Source: Psococerastis gibbosa (lineage: Eukaryota; Arthropoda; Insecta; Psocodea; Psocidae). From it: 64,000 nt of DNA. The notes beneath the pieces were generated by a model. It was not told the origin of the DNA. It was given only the letters and a program-made list of their open reading frames with translations, and did not search any database. Location: assembly GCA_963971405.1 (NCBI GenBank), contig OZ020488.1, positions 20,355,089 to 20,419,088 of the forward strand. The letters are read 5' to 3'. Positions 381 through 53,081 of this stretch are shown in pieces. Within the stretch, counting starts at the first letter, position 1; each line of letters opens with the position of its first letter. The translations under genes were made by a program, and so were the position numbers.

Positions 381-1181
381 GCTTTAAATTATAGCAATTC
401 CTCAGCGACAGCTTTGAAATTCTTAGTGGAAATTCTATATAGCTGTGGGACCCTAATTCCAAGCTTGATATCCTGCCTTCCCGGTGAAATAATTGCATTA
501 ACAAGGCGACAACACTTTCACTGAAAATTGAAATTCCGCTCAGAAAGTGACTGGCTGTTAGCACCGCTATATCTCCCTCCCTCAGTATCAAGTCTTTGTT
601 TTTATGGCCCCCTTTAATGTGAACTCATAATAAAGCTAACCCTTCTTCTACGCCTTCTATAGCCTTCATGGAAGGAATTAATTACCTAAACACGTTTGGT
701 ATGAGGCTTGCACTTATCTCCTAAGCTCCTGTACATCATTAGATTATTACATCCTGCCAAGTTGCTTAAACTGTAAGCTAAACTTAGTAGCTAACTTAGC
801 AAAGTTACACACTCATTTTAAAACTCCCTTTGTGTATCGTTGCGTTGTCATGACAATGAAATGGTAACTTCTCTATAACACTTACCAATCATTATAACAT
901 TGAACAGAACCTGTGTACTTATTTAAAAATTGAAAAAAAAGACATAATATACGCTGAAACTCATGCAATATCGTTATATATTGAAAAAATATATATATAT
1001 TATATATATATATATATATACTTACTGTAAATATGATGTATATTGTAGTTTTGAATAAGAAAAGTATAATATATATAACATAAAGATGTATACATAATAT
1101 AAGTTACATTAGTATACGGCTATTCAAACCGTACGCACTGCCCTCTACCTTAATTTTAAAGCTACAAACACAGTCGATATA
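381..1181. other. Unassigned AT-rich DNA with (AT)n tract
   Basis: I see no gene here. The only distinctive item is an alternating AT run at about 989-1020. The sequence leads directly into the transposon whose left end is at 1182. Confidence 0.6.
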
Positions 1182-1183
1182 TA

Positions 1184-1522
1184 GTCCGGTCAATATAGAC
1201 CAAAAAATGAGAGTGAAGTTACATAAAGTCCCAACAAGCTGAATTTTTGTGAAGTTGTTCAAAACATAATTATAAACAATGTCTGGAAGTTCCCCATCAT
1301 TCCCCTGAAAGGAAAAAATTTAATTCAAGGTCAAAGGTCCAAAAAATGAGTTTTTCGCGATTTTCAGCAAAACGATAAGTTTTATCATAAAAGTACCCCA
1401 GACAAAAATTGTAGATCATAAAATTATCTATAAAAAATGTATCAATACTTTTTTTCTTACGAGCCACCGTTTCTGAGATATAACGATTCTAAAAGTTATA
1501 AAAGTTGTTGTCATAATATGCA
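1184..1522 (+). repeat. Left terminal inverted repeat of element copy 1
   Basis: It starts GTCCGGTCAA and ends near TCATAATATGCA, about 339 bp. It pairs with 2859-3190 almost throughout. The outer 20 bases differ slightly between the two arms: the left arm has an extra AAAAAATGAGAG segment that the right arm lacks. The same difference is present in copy 2, so it belongs to the family. Confidence 0.9.
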
Positions 1523-1601
1523 TGAGAACGCCACGTATATACATCTAGAGTTATAAAATTTTATATATATTTAATGTTTAAATATTTTATTTGATGAACT
1601 T

Positions 1602-2666
1602 ATGACAGTCCCAACCAGTCAACAGAAATTTCTTACTAATACCCACAACAAGTCTCGGTTCATTTCAATGTTGAAAGAAAAGTTTACGGCTGAAAATATA
1701 TTGGTAAAACAAGCTAATAATGATGCTGATGTATTGATTATTGAAACAGCAATAGAGCAATTCAATTTGACAAATACAACTATTGTTGTTGGTGAAGATG
1801 TTGACTTACTTGTATTACTCACTGCTCGAACGCCAACTGAAAAAACTATTTTTTTCTTAAAACCAGGAAAAGCTCAGCATCAATCATATATATATTCATC
1901 AAAAAGTTTATTTACTTTTGTAAAGTGTAAAGATCATGTACTATTTTTACACGCAATAACTGGCTGTGATACGACATCTGCATTTTACAGGAGGGGTAAA
2001 ACAGCAGTTTTCAAAATGTTTGAAAAACAAGATTTAATTCAATGTGCTGAAGTTTTTAAAAAAAGTGATTCAACTCAACAAGAAGTTATTACCAACGGCA
2101 TCCGCTTTCTTCTTTCTATGTACGGAGCTCCTAAAAAAACTACCTGTTTAGATAAACATCGATATGCATGTTTCGTTAAAAATACTAAAAATAAAAAATA
2201 AGTTCAATTAGCTTGTCTTCCTCCAACTTCAGTTGCTGCTCACCAACATCTTTTTCGAGTATATTACCAAGTTCAAGTGTGGCTTGGTTATCAGCTAGAC
2301 CCTACAGACTGGGGTTGGAAGTTGGTCAACAATATATTAGAGCCAGTTCACTCTTTACTTCCACCTGCGCCGAAAAAACTGCTAAACATTATTTTTTGCA
2401 ACTGCAAAAAGGGATGCAGTGCTAAATGTGGTTGCAAAAAAGTCGGACTGTCTTGTTCTTTGGCATGCACAAATTGTCAAGGCCGGTCGTGCTCTAATAT
2501 TGAATCACAAACAATGGAGGATTCGTTTGACTCCGACGAAGTATCATGCGATACATCGCTATTGACGCAATTTACTTGCATCCAAAATGAAGATGAAGAA
2601 GAAGCAGGAGAAGAAGAACAAGAAGAAGATCAAGAAGAAGAACAAGAATTTGAAACTTACGAATAA
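1602..2666 (+). pseudogene. Element-encoded XPG/FEN-like nuclease with Cys-rich tail, one stop
   Basis: One reading frame runs from an ATG at 1602 to a TAA after 2663, interrupted by a single TAA at 2199-2201. Copy 2 has CAA (Gln) at that position. The first 199 residues hold motifs that match the PIN/XPG-FEN nuclease pattern: DADVLI at 41-46, VVGEDVDLLVLL at 62-73 and HAITGCDTTSAF at 117-128 with GK at 132-133. These resemble the FEN1 EAEAQ, TEDSDLL and GCD..GIG motifs. After the stop the frame continues with LPPT, YYQVQVWLGYQ, DWGW and LPPAPKKLL. A dense cysteine cluster follows (CNCKKGC, CGCKK, ACTNC), and the protein ends in a Glu/Asp-rich tail. Related uncharacterised proteins that I recall are longer at the N-terminus, so the family product here seems to start inside the nuclease domain. 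The frame is closed upstream by a TAA at 1572. Nuclease activity is inferred, not shown. Confidence 0.8.
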
Positions 2667-2858
2667 GATGAATAAACTTCAACACTTTTTTTTCATTTAC
2701 ATCGCTTTTATCTTTCCCAATCTTTGAAAATTTCCGTTATTTTGCAAAAGTTTTACATTAAACAGGATCACAACTGACCCGTGGAGTAGGCCTACTGGGG
2801 AAACCACGTTAACAAAAACGCGCTAAGTACACTACCTCATAGGTGGCGTGGAAACGTG

Positions 2859-3190
2859 TGCATATTATGACGATAACAACTTTTATAACTTTTAGAATCG
2901 TTATATCTCAGAAACGGTGGCTCGTAAGAAAAAAAGTATGAATACATTTTTTATAGATAATTTTATGATCTACAATTTTTGTCTAAGGTACTTTTATGAT
3001 AAAACTTACCGTTTTGCTGAAAATCGCGAAAAACTCATTTTTTTGACCTTTGACCTTGAATTAAATTTTTTCCTTACAGGGGAATGATGGGGAACTTCTA
3101 GACATTGTGTGTAATTATGTTTTGAACAACTTCACAGAAATTCAGCTTGTTGGGACTTTATGTAACTTCGAATGTCTAAATTGACCGGAC
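2859..3190 (-). repeat. Right terminal inverted repeat of element copy 1
   Basis: It is the reverse complement of 1184-1522 with few differences, from TGCATATTATGA inward to TTGACCGGAC at the outer end. Single-stranded DNA or RNA from the element could fold into a stem of more than 300 bp. Confidence 0.9.
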
Positions 3191-3192
3191 TA

Positions 3193-4534
3193 ATATAGGT
3201 TTACACGGGTCATTGTTATCCTAGCTGTCTTCCTGCTACAAAGAGACAATAAACGTACCAGTGTTTATCCACCCTAAACGAAATTGTTAGCATAAGTTCT
3301 TTATTTATCACACCCAAAGGAAAACATGGACTTGTCGACACAATATTAAAATGCATCTAAAGTTCAATGCACCTCCTTACTTAACACGCTCGGTATTAGG
3401 CGTGACTACATCATGGAGGGTGTTGCTAATGGAGAAAGCAAATATGGGTTACAGCTGTGTATATGCTATTTAACATGTTTTCTCCTTGAACTTGTTCAAT
3501 GACGCTCGTTTACGACTTCTCTTGAATTGTGTTGAGGCATTATAGTATTTTCGTGCTGTTCTCAACTTCCTATTAAGCATGCAACATTGCTCGGTATTTA
3601 AGGGCTTTTTGATGTCAAACTTACGTCTGAAAATAAAACGTATATTTAAACATTTCGAAACTTTTGTTTTCAAGTCCCTATGAAAAAATACAAGCCGTGT
3701 CGACCAAATGCGGGGAATTTAACACAGAGGAAAAGTTGTGATTGTGCTAGGCTTTGAGATACGTTAAATGTATTGAGTTTCAAGAGTCTTAGGGCGGTAT
3801 TAGGCACTAATAGGACGCAAAATATTTTTTATCAAGAATTAACGCCATGATCGTACAATATACTAAGATGTACAGCAAGCAGTCACCAACAAGCAACGCT
3901 CGTTAACCTGGAAATTAATGGCAAGGCTCACGTCAACGCCGAACTCTAATTGCCAGGAACCCTAAGCCGCCATGATGGAAAAATTAACGAAATTAAATAC
4001 CCGTGTGTTTGGCAGGATAATTACGGCTTCGATTGCTTCAAAAGACATTTTTTACACATTCTTACTATTGAAACGTGTTTGACACGACAAAACAGTCAAT
4101 AGTTGTTAAAATTGTAAGAAAACTAATCTGCAGAAAAGAAGAAGTTACATAAAATCAACTAACTTACAGTCTGTTTGTAAACTAAAATACTATTTTGTTG
4201 TATTGTAACAGAAGATTAGAGAATAGCACATTAGAATATATATGGATATACTGTAGTTAGGGCACTCACGCACTAGAGGGAAGACAAGGCTTGTCAACAT
4301 CGAAATCTTAAAAATAAATTTTTACACCTAATTGACATTGTAGTAGGGGCAACCTTTTAAGGACTTTACATTCGAAATAGAGTATGAAGAAGGCAATGAT
4401 CAGGGGTTTGAGTCCCACGGGATCCATTTTTTTCTTGATAATCTCGAAATCGTAAATTCACAGAGACTCTCAAGGTCATATAATGTACATTTTTTTTCCT
4501 TGTCCAGTACTCCCTGGACTAGGAGCATATATTA
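3193..4534. other. Mostly unassigned; candidate exon and one B-box-like motif
   Basis: Apart from the possible exon at 3470-3626, I see nothing coding. GGTTTGAGTCCC at about 4405-4416 resembles a Pol III B box but has no A box at the right distance, so it may be a decayed SINE. Confidence 0.5.
3470..3626 (-). CDS. Possible terminal exon of an unknown host gene (weak)
   Basis: On the minus strand a pyrimidine-rich tract ending in TTTTATTTTCAG (just above 3626) is followed by about 51 open codons to a TAG-free run and a stop at 3470-3472. The peptide is basic (RRKFDIKKPLN, RKLRTARKYYN, KRSRKRASLNKFKE). An AATAAA lies about 170 bp downstream on the same strand, near 3301-3306. This is the arrangement of a last exon with a short 3' UTR, but each sign is common by chance in AT-rich DNA. 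I do not recognise the peptide; a LINE fragment is an alternative. Confidence 0.15.
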
Positions 4535-5402
4535 AAAGAACCGGTCCGAGTTAACCCGAACATGCTTTCCAATTTATCAAAATTAGTAGATAGAGAAAAT
4601 GAGTAATTTCATGGTAAATAATTTTCCTATGGTTAAATCTCCGACATCTCGGGGGGGGGGGGGGGTGTGTCCACCTGACGTCATTGGAGGTGAGGTAAAT
4701 TCTAGATAGGTCAGACCAACACATTACCACACAGAAATACTGGCAGGGCACGCAATGTATTTGAGCGTGAATTTTCTATCATTTAAAAAAAAAAAACATT
4801 TTTTTTTTACAAAACCAAATACTTTTCTGGGAAAGCAACCTGTCCGGTTTCGTTACTCAATTTAACACCTAAAACATGCCTGAAGGTAGAAATCATCGAT
4901 AGAAAGGTTTCGCAGAAAAATTATTTTTTAGTAATTTTTCATTAAAATTTAGTTATTTTTATTTTTTAACCCCAGAAGCAACCTAACAAGGGGCAAGCGA
5001 CCCCACGCATTTTGTTAAAATTAATAACGACTACAATATATGTGAATTGAAAAGAAATCGTTGGAGCCGTTTTTGAGAAATAATTTTTTTAGACGTTTTT
5101 TTTTGGAGTTTTTTGAGAATAAAACCCCCCAAATTAAGTTAGCCCCAAATAAAAAAAATTCTTCCTAGGTATGATTTTTGTGAATTTACATGCCGTATTT
5201 CATCAAAATCGACCAAGTAGTTTGCCCGGAAATCGACGCACAGACAGACATACAGAACGACAGACAGACAGACAGACATTTCGTAAAAACCACTTTTTTG
5301 GGTTCCTGGGAGCTTAAAACGTGTAAATCCGTTGAAATCTCGGAATCGAAAATTTTGACCGTCACAAAGCTTTCCTTATACTACGTATAAATTGGAAAGC
5401 AA
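4535..5402 (+). mobile_element. AAAGAACCGG family non-autonomous repeat, copy A
   Basis: It begins AAAGAACCGGTCCGAGTT and ends in ACGTA followed by AAATTGGAAAGC. Copies share this layout at 43339-44217, and a foldback version occupies 7826-9102. Landmarks along it are ATGCTTTCCAATTT near the start, a G run of about 15 at position 120, a CCCCAGAAGCAA segment and a (CAGA)n stretch near 5243-5278. GCTTTCC and GGAAAGC form an inverted pair at the right end. It has no open frame of note. Copy B ends in the same AAAGAACCGG motif at both borders, so the family is best read as an inverted-repeat DNA element, and copies A and C as right-end variants. Confidence 0.75.
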
Positions 5403-5524
5403 CAATACAATAACTTACAGGCATACAATTTTTGGGTACCAAAAACCCCCTTAGGTATAATTATGCATAGTAAGAGACACAACTCGGCCGGCATAAAAAG
5501 GCAGACACTTACAGTATTGTTGTC

Positions 5525-5740
5525 AGGATATGAAGAGTAGTGGTACGGACTCTGACTTACACCCGAAGGGTTGTTGGTTTGAGTCCCACACTTCCTGCAT
5601 GTTCCTGCCATGCTTCGGCGAGTATGCAAAGCAGGCGGTCCCGGGCCTGTCTAATTGAGTGTAAGAGGGGGCTTTACAACTCCTCTAAGATGGCCCATAA
5701 ATAGAACAAATAGGCATTATTTATAATTTCTTCTCAGCCC
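5525..5740 (+). mobile_element. tRNA-derived SINE (family 1), copy 1
   Basis: AGAGTAGTGGTACGGACTC carries the A box and GGTTTGAGTCCC the B box, with the tRNA-Glu-like segment between. Downstream are the family body (AAGCAGGCGGTCCCGGGCC) and the AGTGTAAGAG segment. It is diverged from the copy at 21876-22106, and its tail is short (TATTTATAA). Confidence 0.8.
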
Positions 5741-7825
5741 AATCTGTTTTTATTCTTGCGTGTTATAGTGCTCAACTGCTAATTATCTTTCCTATAGACT
5801 TAGGCAAACAGACTGCCAGGCCCGCTTATTATTAGCTTAATCTGTGGATTAAAAATGTAAATAAAAAAAATCCGTTCTAAAATTTTATTGTTATTAGCAC
5901 TAAGTGCCATAGTAGAAGCTTTTTGAAGCTCCGGAGTTGCCATTTCCAAAATTAATAATAATAATAATAAAGCGTGTATTTATAAAAAAAAACATTACAA
6001 ATTTTACTAAACCGGTGCCAAAAAGGCGCGTTGGGATCACCACACAATTTACTGTAGTAGCTTATTTACTAGTTCGTCACACTAACTAAATTAATTAAAT
6101 TTTTTGAATATTCCAGCTGCTCTTTTATACAGAAAATTGAAACCGATCACGCAAGGAAATAGTGCAATTTGACATGCGAAACACCAATGAAATAATTATG
6201 ATTCAGCTTACGAGTCAATGGCTTTAACATTTTCCAACCCTGCTATCAATAATACAACTAGACTACTTTTCCTAAACTTTCCGGCATTTGTATATAAAAA
6301 AATAAAATAAAATGTTTTGCATGGAGCCATATTTTACAACAATCAACTTACACTAGGCTAGAACGAAATTTAAAAATGTGAACAGAAGGGGACAAACCCT
6401 CAAGCCCGGAATTGGATATCGGAACTAAAAGAGCTCATCTGAGGAAGCCTTTCCCCTTATTTGTTTGAATTCTTTGTGCCTCAGGGAGGCATGGAACAAA
6501 GTATTCCGAATCGACTCTCCGACTTAAAATTTTCCAAACTTCCTTAACTTTGATTCGTTTTCGCCTCAGGTGGATAGTAGTCGTTTACAACTCGAAATTG
6601 CTTGAGAAACTGCCAAAAGCCATGAATAAGATTGAGTGAAAAGAATCGGATGATGGAGCGAGCTAACTTCCAACAAGAAAAGTATGTCCAGGCTATATTT
6701 TGCACATATTATTAACTAATGAATTTAACTAGCGATTAAGAAACGAAAATGAAGTACCATTAATTCCATTCTTTCACTGAGCACATTGCATATTTTGGTA
6801 TTACGCAATACGCAGCAATTGAGATACGCGAACTAGATGAAGGTTCCAAAAAGAGCTATGGCAGACGTCAAAACCGAAACATCTTTCCGTCGTAGTGAAC
6901 AAGAGAAGAATACTTCCTACTGCATTGTTGTGAAAGTATGAGACAGAATTCAGGTGCAATAAGGACACGGCCTCACCGCAGTCATGTTCCTGTCGTGCGT
7001 AACATTTGAGATGCTCTTGAAAAAGAAACTATTCACGTCAAGTCTCATCATCTTCTACAAGATGAAAATATAATACTTGAGGAAGGATGTTGTTCTACGT
7101 TCAAAATATTACATGGTTTGAGGTACTTCTGCGTCACTTATTTCCAGGAAGGAGCTTCCAGAGGGTAGTAAGGCAATTGACCAAAGGAATATTTTTCGTG
7201 AACCTTTTCTAGTGAGTTATTTTTTGACAAAAAACTTCATGTTAAAAGTACTAAATAAATTATTCTTAGCAGCGTCGAATAGGATGATAAGACAGGGTGG
7301 AATTTTCAAATTTCAAAAAATTCATTAGGCCTATATTTTACTGTAGTATTTACAAATTGTGCTCTTAAGAACCTGCACGATACAACAATTTAACTTAAAA
7401 TGCTATTCCAAGACCAGTGAACACTTAGATATTGGCCAAATCGGTAGGACCGAGAATCTGAAAATCTACAAGTATAACTAAATCTGTATAATGCATTTAT
7501 CATGCAACGGTCAGTTGCGCTGATATGATGGTACTTGTTATCTCAATTACTTTAATAGCCCATTACGCCGATTAATGTCAAGTTTAGCTCACTACCTCCA
7601 CTGCTATCAAACTATAGTACACGATACAGGAGGCCTCAAACCCCTTAACATTGACCTCATACATTCATATAACATATAGACCGCTAATGAACGTTATACT
7701 ACTAGAGACGAGAAGAGCACCATGTCACGGAGAATAAAATATTCTAGACTTTTCTTTTATAGTTATAACGGTGAACGCAATTACGTCAATTGGAGAATTT
7801 ACAAGATTTTGAATGTCATCAGATA
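5741..7825. other. Unassigned; (AAT)n and a small repeat remnant
   Basis: An (AAT)n tract lies at about 5953-5970. The stretch at about 5824-5862 (AGCTTAATCTG, GATTAAAAATGTAAAT) resembles the inner arm of the foldback at 34182-34336 and may be a fragment of it. I recognise nothing else in these 2 kb. Confidence 0.5.
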
Positions 7826-9102
7826 AAGAACCGGTCCGAGTTTACTCGAACATGCTTTCCAATTTATCGATTAGTAGAGAGAGAAAATGATTAATTTCAT
7901 GGTAAATAATTTTCCTATGGTTAAATTTCGGATATTACGGGGGGGGGGGGGGGGGAGTCGTCCACCTGACGTCACTGAAGGTGACGTAAATTCTACATAG
8001 GTCAGACCAACACATTCCCACACAGCAATAATGGCAGGGCACGCAATGCATTTGAGCGTGAATTTGCTTTCATTTTTTTCAAAAAACATTTTTTTGCACA
8101 AAACCAAACAGTTTTTTGGATAAGCAAACTGTCCGGTTTCGTTACTCAATTTAACACCTAAAACATGCCTTAAGTTAGAAATCATCGATAGAAAGGTTTC
8201 GCAGAAAAATGATTTTTTAGTCATTTTTCATTAAAATTGAGTTATTTTTATTTTTTTACCCCCAGAAGCAAACTATCAAGGGGCAAGCGACCCCCCGCAT
8301 TTCGTTAACATTAATAACGACTACAATATATGTGAATTTAAAAAAAATCGTTGGAGCCGTTTTTGAGGTCCCAGGAACCTAAAAAAAAGTGGTTTTTACG
8401 ATTTGTCTGTCTGTTCATCGATTTCCGAACAAACTACTGGGTCGATTTTGATGAAATTCGGCATGTAGGTTCACAAAAATCATACCTCGGGACCATTTTA
8501 TTTTTATTTTGGGCTAACTCAATTTGGGAGGTTTTATTCTTAAAACATTCCACAAAAAAACGCCTAAAAAATTATTTCTCAAAAACGGCTCCAACGATTT
8601 CTTTTAAATTCACATATGTTGTAATAGTTATTAATGTTGACAAAATGCAGGGGGTCACTTGCCCCTTGATAGTTTGCTTCTGGGGGGTAAAAAAAATAAA
8701 AGTAACTTAATTTTCATGAAAAATGACTAAAAAATAATTTATCTGCTAAACCTTTTGATCGGTGATTTCTACCTTCAGGCATGTTTTAGGTGTTAAATTG
8801 AGTAACGAAACCGGACAGGTTGCTTTCGCAAAAAACGTTTTGGTTATGTGGAAAAAAAAATTTTTGTTTGAAAAAATCATCGAAAATTCACGGTCAAATG
8901 CATTGCGTGCCCTGCCATTATTACTGTGTGGTAATGTGTTGGTCTGACCTATCTAGAATTTACCTCGTCAGGTAGACAACCCCCCACCCAGATATCGAAA
9001 ATTTTGCCATAGGAAAATTATTTACCACGAAATTACTAATTTTCTCCAACTACTAATTGATAAATTGGAAAGCATGTTCGAGTAAACTCGGACCGGTTCT
9101 TT
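7826..9102. mobile_element. AAAGAACCGG family foldback, copy B
   Basis: Both ends read AAAGAACCGGTCCGAGTTTACTCG in inverted orientation, and the arms of about 540 bp (7826-8367 and roughly 8562-9102) are reverse complements with scattered differences. The right half is a nearly whole reversed family unit, including the (CAGA)n stretch seen here as TGTCTGTCTG. The left half is a unit cut off at GGAGCCGTTTTTGAG. About 195 bp in the centre are therefore single-copy. The two ORFs of 117-119 codons inside it fall entirely within repeat sequence. A transcript would form a long hairpin. Confidence 0.85.
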
Positions 9103-9891
9103 GGAAGTTGTACAGACATTAAAAAATTAACAAGTAAGAAAGAAACGTAACAATTGTTACCCAGAAATAGTCTCTTGTATAATTTCACTGAAATGTGACT
9201 AAATGAAATCCAATTGTATGATTATATTTCAAATTACTCAGAATAAAGGCACAACAGATAACGGGGAGAAAGGGGGAAACGAAGATGAAGCGAGAGATTA
9301 GCGGAATTAACCAAGAAAACTGTAAAATTATACATCCGACGGTAATGAGCTACATGATATCTCAATCACCATCAAACCGAACAGTACCATTAAACATTTA
9401 TCGCCCTACAGGAACAAAGAGTCAGTGCTCAAATGCCCTGGCAAACTCGTTCATCTAATTTGTTTCACATCATATTGCCATAAGCACTGGACCGTTTTGA
9501 TGCACCGATATAATCATGGCATTTTTACTTTGTAGCTTAGTATGTTTTGTATGTTTTATAACTATAGCAATGCATAGCACCTTGTCATGGTGAGACTGGC
9601 CTTTAAGGGGGAATGGAAAGAAATATCATGTTCCAATGCAGGGATCGGCAACCTTTTTTTAGCAGCAGAGCCAAATTTCGAAACAACCAGATTTAGACCA
9701 GTTAGAAGAGCTACACATCCAAACCAAAAAAAAACAACACCAAATTTGAATACAATCAACCTTATGAGAAGGTTTACAGGTTATTTGGTATCTTTAAAAT
9801 ACGAATGCACTATAAAAACTATAATTTATAGGTCTGTAAAAATTTCGTATCGCTAAGATAGTGTCCTGTAAATATTCTTTTAGAATGTAAC
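9103..9891. other. Mostly unassigned DNA with a hAT-like end
   Basis: Contains the short motif described at 9639-9676. Both strands are open for about 65-90 codons around 9562-9856, but the peptides are not recognisable. Confidence 0.4.
9639..9676 (+). mobile_element. Possible hAT-type terminal repeat
   Basis: CAGGGATCGGCAACC followed by a T run and AGAGCCAAATTT closely resembles the CAG-G-TCGGCAACC end of many hAT non-autonomous elements. I found no matching inverted end or 8-bp duplication nearby, so this is one end of a fragment at best. Confidence 0.4.
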
Positions 9892-11401: not shown

Positions 11402-11675
11402 TAGGATATGTTGAGAAGTGGTGCGGACTCTCACCAGAAAGGCGCAAATTCCACCGACCTCGATAGTGATATTGACGTGCTAGCAGACATTTTTAGACTG
11501 TCTTTAATGTCTGCTACCACGTCAATATCACTATCACTATCGAGGTCGGTGGAATTTGCGCCAAAGGTAGTGAGTCCCACACTTGCTACATTTTCTACAG
11601 GCGGTCCCGCGCCTTCATAGTTGAGTGTAAGTGAGGGCTCTATAGCCCTAACTCCGCTATTAATGAAAAAAGGGC
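11402..11675 (+). mobile_element. tRNA-derived SINE (family 1), copy 2, split by a hairpin element
   Basis: The head (GAGAAGTGGTGCGGACTCTCACC) and the body (GAGTCCCACACTTGCTACATTTTC, GGCGGTCCCGCGCC, GAGGGCTCTATAGCCCTAACTCCGC) belong to the SINE. A 122-bp hairpin sits between the A and B boxes. The body also lacks part of the middle segment. With its promoter boxes pushed apart and the B box weak, this copy is unlikely to be transcribed by Pol III. Confidence 0.85.
11441..11562. mobile_element. GGCGC hairpin MITE, copy 1
   Basis: The ends GGCGCAAATTCCACCGACC and GGTCGGTGGAATTTGCGCC are exact inverses. The arms meet at a small loop in the AGACTGTCTTTA region, so the whole element is one hairpin. 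AAA flanks both sides, and alignment with intact SINE copies shows this is a 3-bp duplication of SINE sequence. The second copy at 14541-14657 has TTA on both sides. The GG start, hairpin form and 3-bp AT-only duplication fit a PIF/Harbinger-type MITE. Confidence 0.85.
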
Positions 11676-14660: not shown

Positions 14661-15468
14661 TCACTACCTTACCTGTGATGGAAAGAAAACATGTAGTGAA
14701 CTGGAATCCATAAAATGAAGATGATCCATCATCAACTATCAAATGTGCACCAGTAAAGAATGAACAACTTGTTAAGCTAACCAAGTTTCAATTGGAACGT
14801 GATCAGTGTTTTGATTTCATTGCATATGCAAAGAATAATCCGCAAAGTCGTAAACTCCGGATAGACCTCGTTATCATTCCAAGATGTGTGGAATACTTAA
14901 TGAGACTTACTCCTTATTAAACTCAGCAAGTCAATTTACTTTGTATAGTTTACTTTATCGTGTGTTTTACAACGTTATACAGTTTATGTTTAATTAGAAG
15001 TAGATGGATACAATATAAAGCCATCAATTTTTTTATGCAGACTCCTAAGAGAATTGAAATAATTTTATAACCGAAAATAGGATAATAATGATTTCGGATT
15101 GGTATAACAATATATCGTAAATAAAGTAGCTCATTAAATTTGCTCGGAGGAATTGGGTTAATTAATTCTATGCGTTGAGAAGGATATCGAGTAATAAATT
15201 TTATTATAATGCTCTTATAACGTGAAATAATTAAGTTCTTACAACTGGTCCCTTTAAGTCTTTGTTTTTTGCTCATAAACTCACTTTTAACACAAAAACT
15301 AAATATAAACTCAGTACAGGCTAGTTTAAACACACAGGTCTACATTATACAAATAGAATATTATATATACTACAACTACTTTGTTTTTTTTAATTTATAG
15401 GCGCGAGACTCTTCCGAGTATTTGCGCCGGTCGGTGTGTGTGTGTGCGCAGAGGTGCACTACTACTAT
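14661..15468. other. Unassigned AT-rich DNA
   Basis: A (GT)n stretch lies at about 15433-15446, just before the second long-TIR element. A 127-codon minus-strand ORF (14950-15333) is low-complexity and Lys/Ile-rich and is probably chance. Confidence 0.5.
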
Positions 15469-17465
15469 TAGTCCGGTCAATTTAGACATTCGAAGTTACA
15501 TAAAGTCCCAACAAGCTGAATTTCTGTGAAGTTGTTCAAAACATAATTACAAACAATGTCTAGAAGTTCCCCATCATTCCCCTGTAAGGAAAAAATTTAA
15601 TTCAAGGTCAAAGGTAAAAAAAAATGAGTTTTTCGCGATTTTCAGCAAAACGGTAAGTTTTATCATAAAAGTACCTTCGACAAAAATTGTAGATCATAAA
15701 ATTATCTATAAAAAATGTATTCATACTTTTTTCTTACAAGCCACCGTTTCTGAGATATAACGATTCTAAAAGTTATAAAAGTTGTTATCGTCATAATATG
15801 CACTAATATGCACTAATATGTACTATACCTATGAGGTAGTGTACTTAGCGCGTTTTTGTTAACGTGGTTTCCCCAGTAGGCCTACTCCACGGGTCAGTTG
15901 TGATCCTGTTTAATGTAAAACTATTGCAAAATAACGGAAATTTTCAAAGATTGGGAAAGATAAAAGCGATGTAAATGAAAAAAAAGTGTTGAAGTTTATT
16001 CATCTCATTCGTAAGTTTCAAATTCTTGTTCTTCTTCTCCTGCTTCTTCATCATCTTCATTTTGGATGCAAGTAAATTGCGTCAATAGCGATGTATCGCA
16101 TGATACTTCGTCGGAGTCAAACGAATCCTCCATTGTTTGTGATTCAATATTAGAGCACGACCGGCCTTGACAATTTGTGCATGCCAAAGAACAAGACAGT
16201 CCGACTTTTTTGCAACCACATTTAGCACTGCATCCCTTTTTGCAGTTGCAAAAAATAATGTTTAGCAGTTTTTTCGGCGCAGGTGGAAGTAAAGTTTGAA
16301 CTGGCTCTAATATATTGTTGACCAACTTCCAACCCCAGTTTGTAGGGTCTAGCTGATAACCAAGCCACACTTGAACTTGGTAATATACTCGAAAAAGATG
16401 TTGGTGAGCAGCAAAGTTGGAGGAAGGCAAGCTAATTGAACTTGTTTTTTATTTTTAGTATTTTTAACGAAACATGCATATCGATGTTTATCTAAACAGG
16501 TAGTTTTTTTAGGAGCTCCGTACATAGAAAGAAGAAAGCGGATGCCGTTGGTAATAACTTCTTGTTGAGTTGAATCACTTTTTTTAAAAACTTCAGCACA
16601 TTGAATTAAATCTTGTTTTTCAAACATTTTGAAAACTGCTGTTTTACCCCTCCTGTAAAATGCAGATGTCGTATCACAGCCAGTTATTGCGTGTAAAAAT
16701 AGTACATGATCTTTACACTTTACAAAAGTAAATAAACTTTTTGATGAATATATATATGATTGATGCTGAGCTTTTCCTGGTTTTAAGAAAAAAATAGTTT
16801 TTTCAGTTGGCGTTCGAGCAGTGAGTAATACAAGTAAGTCAACATCTTCACCAACAACAATAGTTGTATTTGTCAAATTGAATTGCTCTATTGCTGTTTC
16901 AATAATCAATACATCAGCATCATTATTAGCTTGTTTTACCAATATATTTTCAGCCGTAAACTTTTCTTTCAACATTGAAATGAACCGAGACTTGTTGTGG
17001 GTATTAGTAAGAAATTTCTGTTGACTGGTTGGGACTGTCATAAGTTCATCAAATAAAATATTTAAACATTAAATATATATAAAATTTTATAACTCTAGAT
17101 GTATATACGTGGCGTACTCATGCATATTATGACGATAACAACTTTTATAACTTTTAGAATCGTTATATCTCAGAAACGGTGGCTCGTAAGAAAAAAAAGT
17201 ATTGATACATTTTTTATAGATAATTTTATGATCTACAATTTTTGTCTGAGGTACTTTTATGATAAAACTTACCGTTTTGCTGAAAATCGCGAAAAACTCA
17301 TTTTTTTGACCTTTGACCTTGAATTAATTTTTTTCCTTACAGGGGAATGATGGGGAACTTCCAGACATTGTTTATAATTATGTTTTGAACAACTTCACAA
17401 AAATTCAGCTTGTTGGGACTTTATGTTACTTCACTCTCATTTTTTGGTCTAAATTGACCGGACTA
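15469..17465 (-). mobile_element. Long-TIR nuclease transposon, copy 2, inverted
   Basis: Borders are TA-GTCCGGTCAA at 15469 and TTGACCGGAC-TA at 17465. The inverted repeats are 15471-15802 and 17121-17463. The orientation is opposite to copy 1, and the two copies are about 12.3 kb apart. Just inside the lower arm, ATATGCACTA is tandemly repeated, which copy 1 lacks. Flanks are unrelated to those of copy 1, confirming the ends. A/T-only surroundings and the shared TA suggest TA targets. Confidence 0.9.
16005..17041 (-). pseudogene. Element-encoded XPG/FEN-like nuclease, copy 2, frameshifted
   Basis: The frame starts at the ATG complementary to 17039-17041 and matches copy 1 through HAITGCDTTSAF and on past the position where copy 1 has its stop, which here is Gln. 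About 4 bp (CAGT in copy 1) are missing after LPPT, shifting the frame at about residue 208. The Cys-rich cluster and acidic tail are then open in another frame (16005-16430). The acidic tail is shorter than in copy 1 (EDDEEAGEEEQEFETYE), a change of whole GAA/GAT codons. The upstream truncation is the same as in copy 1. Confidence 0.8.
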
Positions 17466-18224
17466 TATAATAAGAAAAGAAAATACAGAGTGAGAGTAGC
17501 GCCAGGGCGGTAAAACTCGCCAATAAAGACCTTTTTCATTCTACTGTTTTACATTATGAAAGAAATAGCCTGGCAAGAACAAAACGTCCACACACACCAG
17601 AGTGAACGGCGACTAATATTATCCAATATTCCATTGGAGACAATATTTTGACTTAACGAAAAAAAAATCAGCGAAGAAAGATATAGTAGACGTCGTGCGG
17701 TGCAGCAGCTAGTGACGGATTCAGTCTTTTTCGACCCGAATTTTCGGCAAGACCGAACAGAAACCGACCAAACCGAACAGGATCGAAAAAATCAGCAGAC
17801 TGGACAGTTCGGTCCCGGCAGTCCCGGACGGCCAATCACCAGCAGCAGCTCATAAGACGACAATAAAATGGCTAAATGTCTCACTATAAGGTAGAGGTGT
17901 GGGACAAAACAATGGAGATAGCATTAGAAAGTCATGTCAAGCGCAAACCGTGGGCGGGCAAGTAAATCACCCATCTAGCTCATTGCTTTGCCCATGCCAT
18001 TCCGAGATTTACACTTAGCCTCATTCGCAGTGACAGATGGCGTGATTGGAGCAGCTGTGGCTAAGTCCAACATGGGGTAGCTGTACTATCGTATAATTCA
18101 CCTTGTTTTGGACAAACACTACATCTGAACCTATTGCAGAACCTGTCGATGACCAGTTTACATTAAAACCAGTCCATGTACTTTATATTAAGTTATTTCC
18201 CTCCATTTGCAACATAAAAGAATT
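17466..18224. other. Unassigned DNA
   Basis: Contains a local ACCGAAC/ACCGACC-rich stretch near 17750-17790. No gene or repeat recognised. Confidence 0.5.
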
Positions 18225-21830: not shown

Positions 21831-21875
21831 AGATGTGTGGTTATACAGTAAATTACAAATTTAAGCAGACATTAA

Positions 21876-22075
21876 GGACATGTAGCGTAGTGGTACGGAC
21901 TATGACTTTCACCCGAAAGGTTGTTGGTTCGAGTCCCACACTGGCTACATTTTCGGGTCATGCTTTGGAGGGCATGTAAAGCAGGCGGTCCCGGGCTTTC
22001 CTTGTTGAGTGTGAGAGAGGGCTTTTAGCCCTGACTCCACTAGGTTGGCTTAGTAATAGAAACAATAAAAAGTCC

Positions 22076-24473: not shown

Positions 24474-24486
24474 AGAATTAATATTT

Positions 24487-24696
24487 CAGGACATGTAGAG
24501 TTGTGGTACAGACTCTGACTTTCACCCGAAAAATTGTTGGTTCGAGGCCCACACTTCCTACATTTTCTGGCCATGCTTTGGAGGGCATGTAAAGCAGGCG
24601 GTCCCAGACCTTCCTAGCTTAGTGTAAGAGACGGCTTTATAGCCCTAACTCCGCTAGGTTGGCTTAGTAATAGAACAAAATAAGTAATTTTTTTTT
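24487..24696 (+). mobile_element. tRNA-derived SINE (family 1), copy 5, with target duplication
   Basis: The head GGACATGTAGAGTTGTGG, B box GGTTCGAGGCC, the body AAGCAGGCGGTCCCAGACC and GGTTGGCTTAGTAATAG are present, followed by a T-rich tail. AGAATTAATATTT occurs exactly at 24474-24486 and again at 24697-24709. A 13-bp duplication of this type is produced by LINE-encoded endonuclease, so the insertion is complete and fairly young, although the B box has a base change. Confidence 0.9.
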
Positions 24697-43338: not shown

Positions 43339-44217
43339 AAAGAACCGGTCCGAGTTTACTCGAACATGCTTTCCAATTTATCGATTAGTAGAGAGAGAAA
43401 ATGATTAATTTCATGGTAAATAATTTTCCTATGGTTAAATTTCAGATATCAGGGGGGGGGGGGGGCGTCCACCTAACGTCACTGAAGGTAACGAAAATTC
43501 TAGATAGGTCAGACCTACACATTACCACACAGCAATAATGGCAGGGCACGCAATGCATTTGAGCGTGAATTTGCTTTCATTTCTTCAAAAAAAAATTTTT
43601 GCACAAAATCCAATAGTTTCTTGGAAAACCAAACTATCCGGTTTCATTACTCAATTTAACACATAAAACATGCTTGAAGTTAGAAATCATAGATAGAAAG
43701 GTTTCGCAGAAAAATGATTTTTTAGTAATTTTTCACTAAAATGTAGTTATTTTTTTTTTTTTTTACCCCCAGAAGCAAACTATCAAGGGGCAAGCGACCC
43801 CCGCATTTTATTAACATTAATAATGACTACAATATATGTGAATTTAAAAGAAATCGTTGGAGCCGCTCTTGAGAAATAATTGTTTTAGACGTTTTTTTGT
43901 TGTTGAGTTTTTTGAGAATAAAACCCCCCCAAATTGAGTTAGCCCAAAATAAAAATAAATGGTCTCGAGGTATGATTTTTATAAACCTACATGCCAAATT
44001 TCATTTAAATCGACCGAGTAGTTTGCCCGGAAATCGATGAACAGACAGACAGACAGCAGAGCGACAGACAGACAGACATTTCGTAAAAACCAATTTTTTG
44101 GGTTCCTGGGACCTCAAAACGTGTAAATCCGTTGAAATCTCAGAATCGAAAATTTCGACCGTCACAAAGCTTTCCTTATACTACGTATGAATTGGAAAGC
44201 AATAAATTGGAAAGCAA
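43339..44217 (+). mobile_element. AAAGAACCGG family repeat, copy C, inserted at a SINE
   Basis: It has the same order of landmarks as copy A: AAAGAACCGGTCCGAGTTTA, a G run near 43453-43465, CCCCCAGAAGCAAACTATC, (CAGA)n near 44040-44078 and an ATTGGAAAGC end, here duplicated. By eye it is closest to copy B in its first 100 bp. The junction with the SINE at 43338/43339 is sharp. Confidence 0.8.
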
Positions 44218-50558: not shown

Positions 50559-50986
50559 GTGAGTGCAACTGAAAATACACAATATAATACTAAACATCAC
50601 TGTCTGCCTTTCTCACCCAATAAGTCAAGCCGCAAGCGCATAGTATAGTAAACAGAAAAATGAATGAACACGGAACAGATTAGTGAATCTTTACAAATTA
50701 TTGTCGACATCGCTATTAATTTCTAGATATAAAACAACGCCGAGTTTTATGTTAGCGGGCTTATAAGTTATAACTCAAGAATGGCTGGACCAATTTGAAT
50801 GATGATGAATGATCAATGGTTTGTAGGATTCATCATCGCCCCAACTAGTCCTCTCTACCTTCAAAAACATCTAAAAAATAATTGATAAATATATATAAAT
50901 AAATAAAACAAAAATCTGAAACTGATTACTGAAACAACGTCAGCCGAAACACCCATTAGCTCGGAACACGACATTAATTTACTGTT

Positions 50987-51090
50987 AGGACATGTAGAGT
51001 AGTGGTACGGACTCCGACTTTCACCCGAATTGTTGTTGGTTCGAGTCCCACACTTGATATATTTTCTGGACGTGCTTTGAGAGGGCTAGG
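50987..51090 (+). mobile_element. tRNA-derived SINE (family 1), copy 8, 3'-truncated
   Basis: Head AGGACATGTAGAGTAGTGG with A box, GACTTTCACCCGAA and B box GGTTCGAGTCC are well kept. The body stops after TTTTCTGGACGTGCTTTGAGA, so the tail is lost. Confidence 0.85.
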
Positions 51091-53081
51091 GTAGTTTTTG
51101 TAATTATTTGGAAGGAGTCAACTTATTAGTCAAGTGGTTTTATTCGTCAGTCAGGGTGGACATTACTCAGATTTCTCTGCTGCCATGTCGCTGCAAGCAT
51201 GAGTACCAACATGAAGCAAGGGGTTCCCACAATTTGAGCCAATGGCTGGCATATAATATACAGTATGTGTCACGAATTAATATTGCGATTTTGGAGATGA
51301 AGTCCAGGAAAAAATTTACCTGATAGATTTACCGATAAAATAAGTATGAAAAATAAATAAAATAAACGGAAAAGGTCATCTTATCATACGCTAATCAACT
51401 GCTTTCTACAGTAGTTTCGCCACCACTGTCCTTAAAAAGAACTAATAGTGGATACATTTACTTTTCAAGAAATTAACCGCCAGCTAAGTCACAAGGGTCA
51501 GCCAGTCGCGACTTACCGTTTTTCCACACAATTTTAATTTAAAATTCTCTTGGTAAGTGGGCCCGTATCTTTGACCAATCTCATGCCCGCATGCTTGCAG
51601 TACCATAACGTCCTTTTTACCCTCTGGTGACCAAGGCGACGCGGCGGTACACAAGGGCATGTGGGTCAGAGATGTACACAGAGCGGTTGCATCACAGTAT
51701 TATAATGTCATCAATTAAAACCTACTGAGGGGTTTTACTTTTAGAGGATTACCCAGTGGTGGCTCGTGGGGTCAAGTTTTGGGAAGGCTGCCATTAATGT
51801 CAAACTGAGTCAATCTAATAAAAAAAACCTCAATGATATGAAATTAAATGCGGAGGACAAATTGAAGGTGTCCCATGCAATGGGATGGGGTCGCACTTGC
51901 CCTGAGAATAAAGTTAACATACATCTGATACAGTTCAAGTTCACGCTACGCTAATTTCATGAATTATGCACTCACTCAACTTTCCAAGACTAGTGAAACA
52001 GAATGCTTAACATGGCATTATTTCTACTTAGCGTGCTAATTAATACTCTGTTGAGGTAAAGCCCCGTCAAGTCAACTATTACGTCAATATTATAAGTTTC
52101 GGTTTCCAATTTTGAGGGATTCAGCTATATCATCCTATTATCCCAGAATAACCATTCCAAAATGACCAGATCTCTAATAACGTGAACCTCCCTATTACAA
52201 ACCACGAACCCGATAAATTGGCTAAAATCGGGTGAAACAACCCGAGTAATCTCTCAAAAATAGCTCTGACTGACGCGGAATTAAAGCAATTAAAAGTTTT
52301 GCTGTGTTTGGTGCAGTATTGATCGGGTCATTGAGATTAGCACGTCGTGTTGTATAATCGCGAAATACAGTGAAATTGTTGCTATGGTTTGTTCATTACC
52401 TTTTACCTACCCAATAAATATTATTAGCCAACCGGGAATTAACCTTACGACTCGGCCGCATGCATCCCGTATTACCTACGTGTTTTATGGTCTTGTGGGA
52501 ACCTCCATCTGGATCGCTAGTCCCACAATTTCCAGCGCATGGATGTCACAGCCTATTTTATTGCTGGTTTTCTATAAATATCTAACCATTTTACCCCAGC
52601 TGCTAGAATTTATCGTCACGAACCACATCATGTCATAGCAACCAATAATTATAATGTGATTAAGAGGACCAAACACGCACTTGTTGAACGCTTTTCGTTC
52701 CCTTAATTTGATAATTATGAGGCTATTTAACCGTCGACCTGCACTAAGCACTTGTAATGCGATCAGGAATTAAATTAAAATTTAATGCTAAATCATTATT
52801 TTGCATTGAAAAAATGTCGACCTATTTTTCCATTAAACAAGCATATTTTACGTTAGGAAATACCAAAATAACCTCAAACAAGAATCAAACCACCCAACTA
52901 AATTCAAATTTACAAATCGACAAACATCAAAATATTCTAAGAGAATAAGAATAATTTCTTTTAAATTTTAAGAGCACCCACAAAACAATTAATATTTACA
53001 TGAAAGTAATAATTTAATATAATATTATTTTCACATGCTCAATCAGAAAGCAATTTTGTGTTATTTTGCTTTATGCTTTAT
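51091..53081. other. Unassigned DNA
   Basis: CAGTGGTGGCTCGTGGGG near 51754 resembles the end of some DNA elements but has no partner. The part at 52640-53060 is AT-rich and otherwise featureless. Confidence 0.4.

What the first reader, a model, noticed from the sequence alone, without database searches (positions are those of the whole stretch)
1182..3192. A 2-kb transposon whose only product looks like a flap-endonuclease-type nuclease
Seen: precise ends at two loci, inverted repeats of about 335 bp, TA at each border, and one gene with DAD, GEDVDLLVLL and GCDTTSAF...GK motifs plus a Cys-rich cluster. Known: such acidic motifs mark the XPG/FEN branch of PIN nucleases. Inferred: either this nuclease moves the element, which would be an unusual mechanism, or the element is a passenger moved in trans by a transposase that recognises the GTCCGGTCAA ends.
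Basis: partly seen in the sequence, partly recalled or inferred. Interest (0 to 1): 0.75.

Follow-up and report, generated by a model that had tools for sequence, protein, structure and literature searches.

The report
Crippled copy of a jumping gene
This 2-kb stretch is a shortened jumping gene that has lost its own mover enzyme, keeps only a piece of a DNA-cutting enzyme, and was most likely moved by full-length relatives of a little-studied but already described transposon type.

Summary
In detail: 1182-3192 is a precise mobile element with ~340-bp inverted repeats, 16 full or nearly full copies in the genome (0.5-1.3% from their majority) and one residual gene with XPG/FEN-type motifs and a Cys cluster. 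Details change. "TA" is part of the element end (TAGTCC...GGACTA); the target duplication is 3 bp (14 of 15 copies). The gene is only the last quarter of a longer one and, in the window copy, has a stop codon inside. Two related families in the same genome (A, 5.97 kb, 17 of 19 copies intact; B, 5.80 kb) have ends with one mismatch over positions 1-11 and the same 3-bp duplication. They encode ~1500 residues: Cys motifs, a large central domain with candidate DDE residues, a complete XPG/FEN-like nuclease (predicted fold of B matches FEN1, T5 FEN, Exo1, XPG) and the Cys cluster. The window protein lacks the central domain and the first two nuclease motifs, so it is a predicted dead remnant and the element a passenger moved in trans. 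Nuclease, duplication and length fit the published AcademX lineage of Academ transposons; no Academ reference sequence could be compared, and the central domain's fold was not established.

The parts
1182..3192 (+). whole element, 2011 bp, ends TAGTCCGGTCAA...TTGACCGGACTA
1179..1181 (.). target duplication, left copy (ATA)
3193..3195 (.). target duplication, right copy (ATA)
1182..1522 (+). left terminal inverted repeat
   Evidence: 92% over 344 columns
2859..3192 (-). right terminal inverted repeat
1602..2201 (+). residual gene, first part: part of an XPG/FEN-like nuclease domain, ended by a stop at 2199-2201 that the other 15 copies lack
2202..2666 (+). residual gene, same frame after the stop: end of the domain, Cys cluster, acidic tail
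1722..1730 (+). DAD motif
1791..1805 (+). GEDVD motif
1962..1979 (+). GCDTTS motif
2397..2492 (+). Cys cluster (CNCKKGC...CGC...CSLACTNC...C)
   Evidence: no Pfam match to it
15469..17465 (-). second copy (L014); TAT duplicated at 15466-15468 and 17466-17468

Best explanation
The element is a non-autonomous, internally deleted member of a group of long-inverted-repeat cut-and-paste DNA transposons, most likely the AcademX lineage of the Academ superfamily. Full-length members encode a ~1500-residue protein: Cys motifs, a central transposase domain (inferred DDE), a complete XPG/FEN-like nuclease and a Cys cluster. In the window family everything from the start of the gene to about residue 1218 of 1584 (relative B numbering) is gone. 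What is left is the two terminal repeats plus the gene's last ~360 codons, which lack the first two nuclease motifs. Shown: precise ends, 3-bp duplication, recent dispersal, relatives with matching ends encoding the longer protein, and a predicted FEN/XPG fold of the complete domain in B. Inferred: a full-length relative's protein recognises TAGTCC(A/G)GTCA ends and moves the element in trans; the residual protein is a dead remnant.
For: 3-bp duplication in 14 of 15 window-family copies and in the one copy examined of A (AAC) and of B (TAG). A and B ends TAGTCCAGTCA against TAGTCCGGTCA: 1 mismatch in positions 1-11, which with equal duplication length meets the Repbase rule quoted in PMC4455052 (passages). 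A: 17 of 19 copies with an intact 1487-codon frame; B: 4 of 7 with 1585. Window protein aligns to B from about residue 1218 on, 40% identity. Decayed copies with the TAGTCCGG ends (L021, L022, L023, L025) carry upstream pieces of the gene, e.g. B residues 982-1289 in L021. Fold of B's domain: pLDDT 66, pTM 0.67; 41 Foldseek hits with E<=0.001; all 50 rows listed are 5'-nucleases of the FEN/XPG/XRN kind. Copies 0.5-1.3% from their majority; 54 non-synonymous, 14 synonymous, 4 stop changes against neutral expectation 50.7/15.9/5.3. Unoccupied sites. AcademX = 3-4 bp duplications and a nuclease (PMC10045372, passages); curated bivalve Academ mean 5565 bp (PMC10294476, passages).
Against: No intact full-length element with the exact TAGTCCGGTCAATTTAGAC ends was found; copies with upstream gene pieces and TAGTCCGG ends are decayed. 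The central domain matched nothing above cut-off in Pfam, NCBIfam or PDB sequences, and its structure prediction failed (pLDDT 35, two sequences), so DDE is read from conserved FDNAD, FDQPL and IEQ alone. The FEN/XPG match rests on a moderate model with large rmsd (8.7-23 A) and TM-scores of 0.26-0.42 by query over the listed rows; a profile search of PDB sequences found no FEN-type nuclease. Distinct changes per site are fewer in the residual frame (0.068) than outside it (0.121), which could be read as constraint. No Academ reference sequence was available.
Confidence: 0.85

Rival explanations
1. Autonomous element: the nuclease encoded by the 2-kb element itself cuts and moves it.
For: It is the only gene seen in the element; the majority of 16 copies has an open frame of 363 codons; 3 of 16 copies keep the whole 354-codon frame open.
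Against: Lacks the first two acidic motifs (IDGG, IVFDG) and the first strands of the fold present in A and B; the frame is broken in 13 of 16 copies; neutral proportion of change types; longer relatives share the ends.
Confidence: 0.03
2. The truncated nuclease/Cys-cluster protein acts as a regulator that binds the ends and represses or competes with the full-length protein, like the KP derivative of the P element (recalled comparison).
For: Derivatives tend to keep the 3' part of the gene: a search with B's nuclease/Cys part gives 73 of 100 rows outside A and B, 28 of them the window family and 45 others, whereas the central domain gives 4 of 33 rows outside A and B in each of two searches. 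A second family with ends TAGTCCATTG keeps only the last 162-225 codons, open in L048, L049 and L050. Fewer distinct changes per site inside the residual frame than outside (0.068 against 0.121).
Against: No clear sign of selection: change types among window copies are in neutral proportion; dN/dS 0.54-0.92 among the three second-family copies on few changes. One search scored 99 of 259 candidates and its query is shorter, so the bias is approximate.
Confidence: 0.1
3. The transposons are a superfamily other than Academ that independently combines an XPG-like nuclease with 3-bp duplications.
For: No reference Academ sequence was compared; the Kojima 2020 paper is not held.
Against: Nuclease, duplication length and element length fit published AcademX/Academ statements.
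Confidence: 0.15

Closest known systems
AcademX lineage of the Academ superfamily (named in PMC10045372, passages seen; Kapitonov and Jurka 2010 and Kojima 2020 seen only as references)
   Same: 3-bp duplication, nuclease encoded with the putative transposase (that X stands for XPG is recalled), autonomous length 5.8-6.0 kb against a published bivalve Academ mean of 5565 bp
   Different: window element is internally deleted, lacks the central domain and part of the nuclease; no reference sequence compared
Families A and B of the same genome (L043+L041, L044+L042)
   Same: end sequence over positions 1-11 with one mismatch, 3-bp duplication, homologous C-terminal quarter of the protein
   Different: full length with intact frames; the ends diverge beyond the first dozen or so bases
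FEN1/XPG/Exo1/GEN1 5'-nucleases
   Same: predicted fold of B's complete domain and order of acidic motifs (motif correspondence recalled)
   Different: transposon-encoded, followed by a Cys cluster; the window copy lacks the first two motifs

Membership tests
AcademX (Academ superfamily) | 3- or 4-bp target duplication | tested here: met
   3 bp in 14 of 15 full-length window-family copies, and in the one A and one B copy examined; published value from PMC10045372
AcademX (Academ superfamily) | nuclease (not helicase) encoded with the transposase | tested here: met
   FEN/XPG fold predicted for B's domain; met for relatives A/B, only as a remnant in the window element
AcademX (Academ superfamily) | DDD/E transposase of Academ type | tested here: inconclusive
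   FDNAD, FDQPL and IEQ conserved between A and B; no profile hit above cut-off, failed fold; absent from the window element by deletion
AcademX (Academ superfamily) | sequence homology to a reference Academ protein | not testable with these tools
   no Academ sequence held; paper not held
Same group as A and B | Repbase rule for non-autonomous elements: same duplication length and end positions 1-11 aligned with at most 1 mismatch | tested here: met
   rule in PMC4455052 (passages); ends
XPG/FEN nucleases | fold | tested here: met
   for relative B by predicted structure; sequence searches alone did not find it
XPG/FEN nucleases (window copy as a working enzyme) | full set of acidic motifs | tested here: not met
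   window protein starts after the first two motifs
Tc1/mariner | TA target duplication | tested here: not met
   TA belongs to the element; duplication is 3 bp of varied sequence
Tesmin/TSO1-like CXC domain | Pfam profile match | tested here: not met
   no such match; the Cys spacing resembles it from recall

The most novel reading that the evidence does not exclude
Several lineages of this transposon group have separately shed the transposase and kept the gene's C-terminal nuclease/Cys-cluster part, because that protein binds the ends and regulates (or helps) the full-length enzyme in trans.
Probability: 0.08. Interest if true: 0.55.

Novelty: new member of a known kind. Interest (0 to 1): 0.27.

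Why it matters
It makes it unlikely that the nuclease by itself moves the element, and it points to family A (17 of 19 copies intact and nearly identical) as a good candidate for a live AcademX-type transposon, in which the role of the XPG-like nuclease could be tested.

Tried and rejected
Tc1/mariner-type TA duplication: rejected (3 bp). Local hopping between the two window copies: the pair ranks 52 of 120 in similarity, not supported. Selection on the residual frame: change types look neutral, weak at most in the second family. Relatives in viral contigs (2 scans), prokaryote genomes (2 scans) and phages (nuclease/Cys part only): none confirmed. Profile searches: nothing above cut-off; a sub-threshold NCBIfam match of B's domain to a 5'-3' exonuclease model, E 0.065, is only suggestive, and the same call gave an equally weak unrelated match for the upstream part (E 0.086). 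Fold of the central domain: failed, not searched. L045/L046 as short derivatives with the same ends: ~200-bp palindromes whose flanks (ATA/TGT) do not match and that lie in a longer shared repeat, left open. Duplications that do not match: L012, L017/L029, L022, L023, L049. The notebook entry is right on the coordinates; that gave 1180-3194 in error.

Full report
Observation. The element at 1182-3192 is real and its borders are exact. The two terminal repeats match at 92% over 344 columns. A search of the genome that holds the window (409 Mb, 68 contigs, unnamed, animal-like by inference) gave 125 matches, 16 of them spanning all or nearly all of the 2011 bp: the window copy and 15 others at 96-98%, on eight contigs. 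Each of the 16 differs from their majority by 0.5-1.3%, and pairs differ by a median of 1.54%, so the burst is recent. The 19-bp end with up to two mismatches occurs 422 times against 2 for the reversed control.

Ends and target. The bases just outside are duplicated over 3 bp in 14 of 15 copies with both ends (L012 has CTA/CAA; L007 lacks its left end). Among nine further places with both ends, six match (L021, L026, L027, L028, L030, L032) and three do not (L017/L029, L022, L023). The sites vary (ATA, TAA, ACA, CAG and so on), so there is no TA or TTAA rule. Of 15 empty sites rebuilt by joining flanks, two had matches running across the junction among the loci held: the L004 site in four loci and the L013 site in three, the latter with only ~20 bases left of the junction.

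What the gene is. The window frame 1602-2666 has a stop at 2199-2201, which the other 15 copies lack; the whole 354-codon frame is open in 3 of 16 copies, L004, L008 and L009. A search with its first 199 residues found, besides its own family, two families with long frames. Family A (L043+L041) is 5970 bp long (C1:19173756-19179725), with repeats 92.6% alike over 527 columns, ends TAGTCCAGTCAAAT and duplication AAC; its frame of 1487 codons (1482 from the first ATG) is intact in 17 of 19 copies. Family B (L044+L042) is 5804 bp, with ends TAGTCCAGTCATTA and duplication TAG; its frame of 1585 codons (1584 from the first GTG) is intact in 4 of 7 copies. The A and B proteins are 47% identical. Both hold two Cys/His clusters, a large central region with conserved FDNAD, FDQPL and IEQ, then IDGG or LDGG, IVFDGYP, DAD, GEDxD and GCDTTS motifs and a Cys cluster. 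The window protein matches only from about residue 1218 of B's 1584 on. It has DAD, GEDVD and GCDTTS and the Cys cluster but not xDGG, IVFDG or the central region. From recall, these motifs correspond to the metal-binding acids of FEN1, of which the first two are missing here.

Fold. AlphaFold2 on 425 residues of B's C-terminal part with six rows (one doubled by mistake) gave pLDDT 66 and pTM 0.67. Foldseek against PDB gave 41 hits at E<=0.001; the 50 rows listed are FEN1, T5 D15, plastid exonuclease 1, Rad2, XPG, Exo1, ExoIX, GEN1 and Xrn1/Xrn2/Rat1. TM-scores are modest (0.26-0.42 by query) and rmsd large (8.7-23 A). Sequence profiles did not find the relation: five chance-like PDB matches, best E 0.029, none a FEN-type nuclease. 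The central region failed to fold (pLDDT 35, two sequences) and matched no profile above cut-off, so DDE is inferred from motifs alone.

How it works. The element carries no transposase gene, so its recent copies must have been moved by another element's protein. A and B carry a candidate and share ends and duplication length. They meet the Repbase rule for grouping non-autonomous elements (same duplication length, positions 1-11 with at most one mismatch; PMC4455052, passages). Whether A, B or a lost parent with TAGTCCGG ends did it is not known: decayed copies with TAGTCCGG ends carry upstream pieces of the gene (L021, 3.66 kb, B residues 982-1289; also L022, L023 and L025), but the central domain was found almost only in A and B. 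Distinct changes among copies in the residual frame (54 non-synonymous, 14 synonymous, 4 stops) match the neutral expectation (50.7, 15.9, 5.3), as for a dead passenger; against this, distinct changes per site are fewer inside the frame (0.068) than outside (0.121), which I take to reflect variable terminal repeats but did not test.

Family label. Passages of PMC10045372 state that AcademX makes 3- or 4-bp duplications and AcademH 9- or 10-bp, tied to nuclease and helicase. Passages of PMC10294476 give curated bivalve Academ elements a mean of 5565 bp. That the X stands for XPG is recalled. The defining paper (Kojima 2020) is not held and no Academ protein could be compared, so AcademX is the best label, not a proven one. 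Literature searches answered were made; a whole-word search for Academ, XPG and transposase together gave 0 papers.

Unexplained. With a query from B's nuclease/Cys part, 73 of 100 rows lie outside A and B (28 in the window family, 45 elsewhere; 99 of 259 candidates scored). With central-domain queries, 4 of 33 rows do, in each of two searches. A second short family (L048, L049, L050; ends TAGTCCATTG; duplications TTT and TAT in L048 and L050, not matching in L049) keeps only the last 162-225 codons. dN/dS among its three copies is 0.54-0.92 on few changes. Chance 5'-sided deletions or a need for 3' sequence in cis would explain this as well as a regulator.

Verdict. Real, ordinary in mechanism: a non-autonomous deletion derivative of an Academ-type, most likely AcademX, DNA transposon.

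Noticed in passing
L043+L041 (G000:C1:19173756-19179725): Family A: 17 of 19 copies with an intact 1487-codon frame and nearly identical central domains; looks recently active.
   Followed up: partly
L048, L049, L050: A separate non-autonomous family with ends TAGTCCATTG keeps only the last 162-225 codons of the same gene, including the Cys cluster.
   Followed up: partly
G000, whole genome: Outside families A and B, fragments of the gene's 3' part (73 of 100 rows) outnumber fragments of its central part (4 of 33 rows).
   Followed up: partly
L045:98-300 and L046:88-284: Palindromic ~200-bp stretches with the same end sequence, inside a longer shared repeat; not resolved.
   Followed up: no
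window 4537-5405, 7825-9104, 43339-44205: Another repeat family in direct and inverted copies (65-98% alike), not identified.
   Followed up: no
window 5522-5693, 11598-11659, 21872-22043, 24485-24656, 50984-51137: A short dispersed repeat, partly with the core CAGGCGGTCCC; no tRNA or Rfam match in the window.
   Followed up: no
L026 (G000:C12:39570675-39577834): A 7.16-kb place with both ends and GTA duplicated; contains a window-family copy, perhaps with a nested insertion.
   Followed up: no
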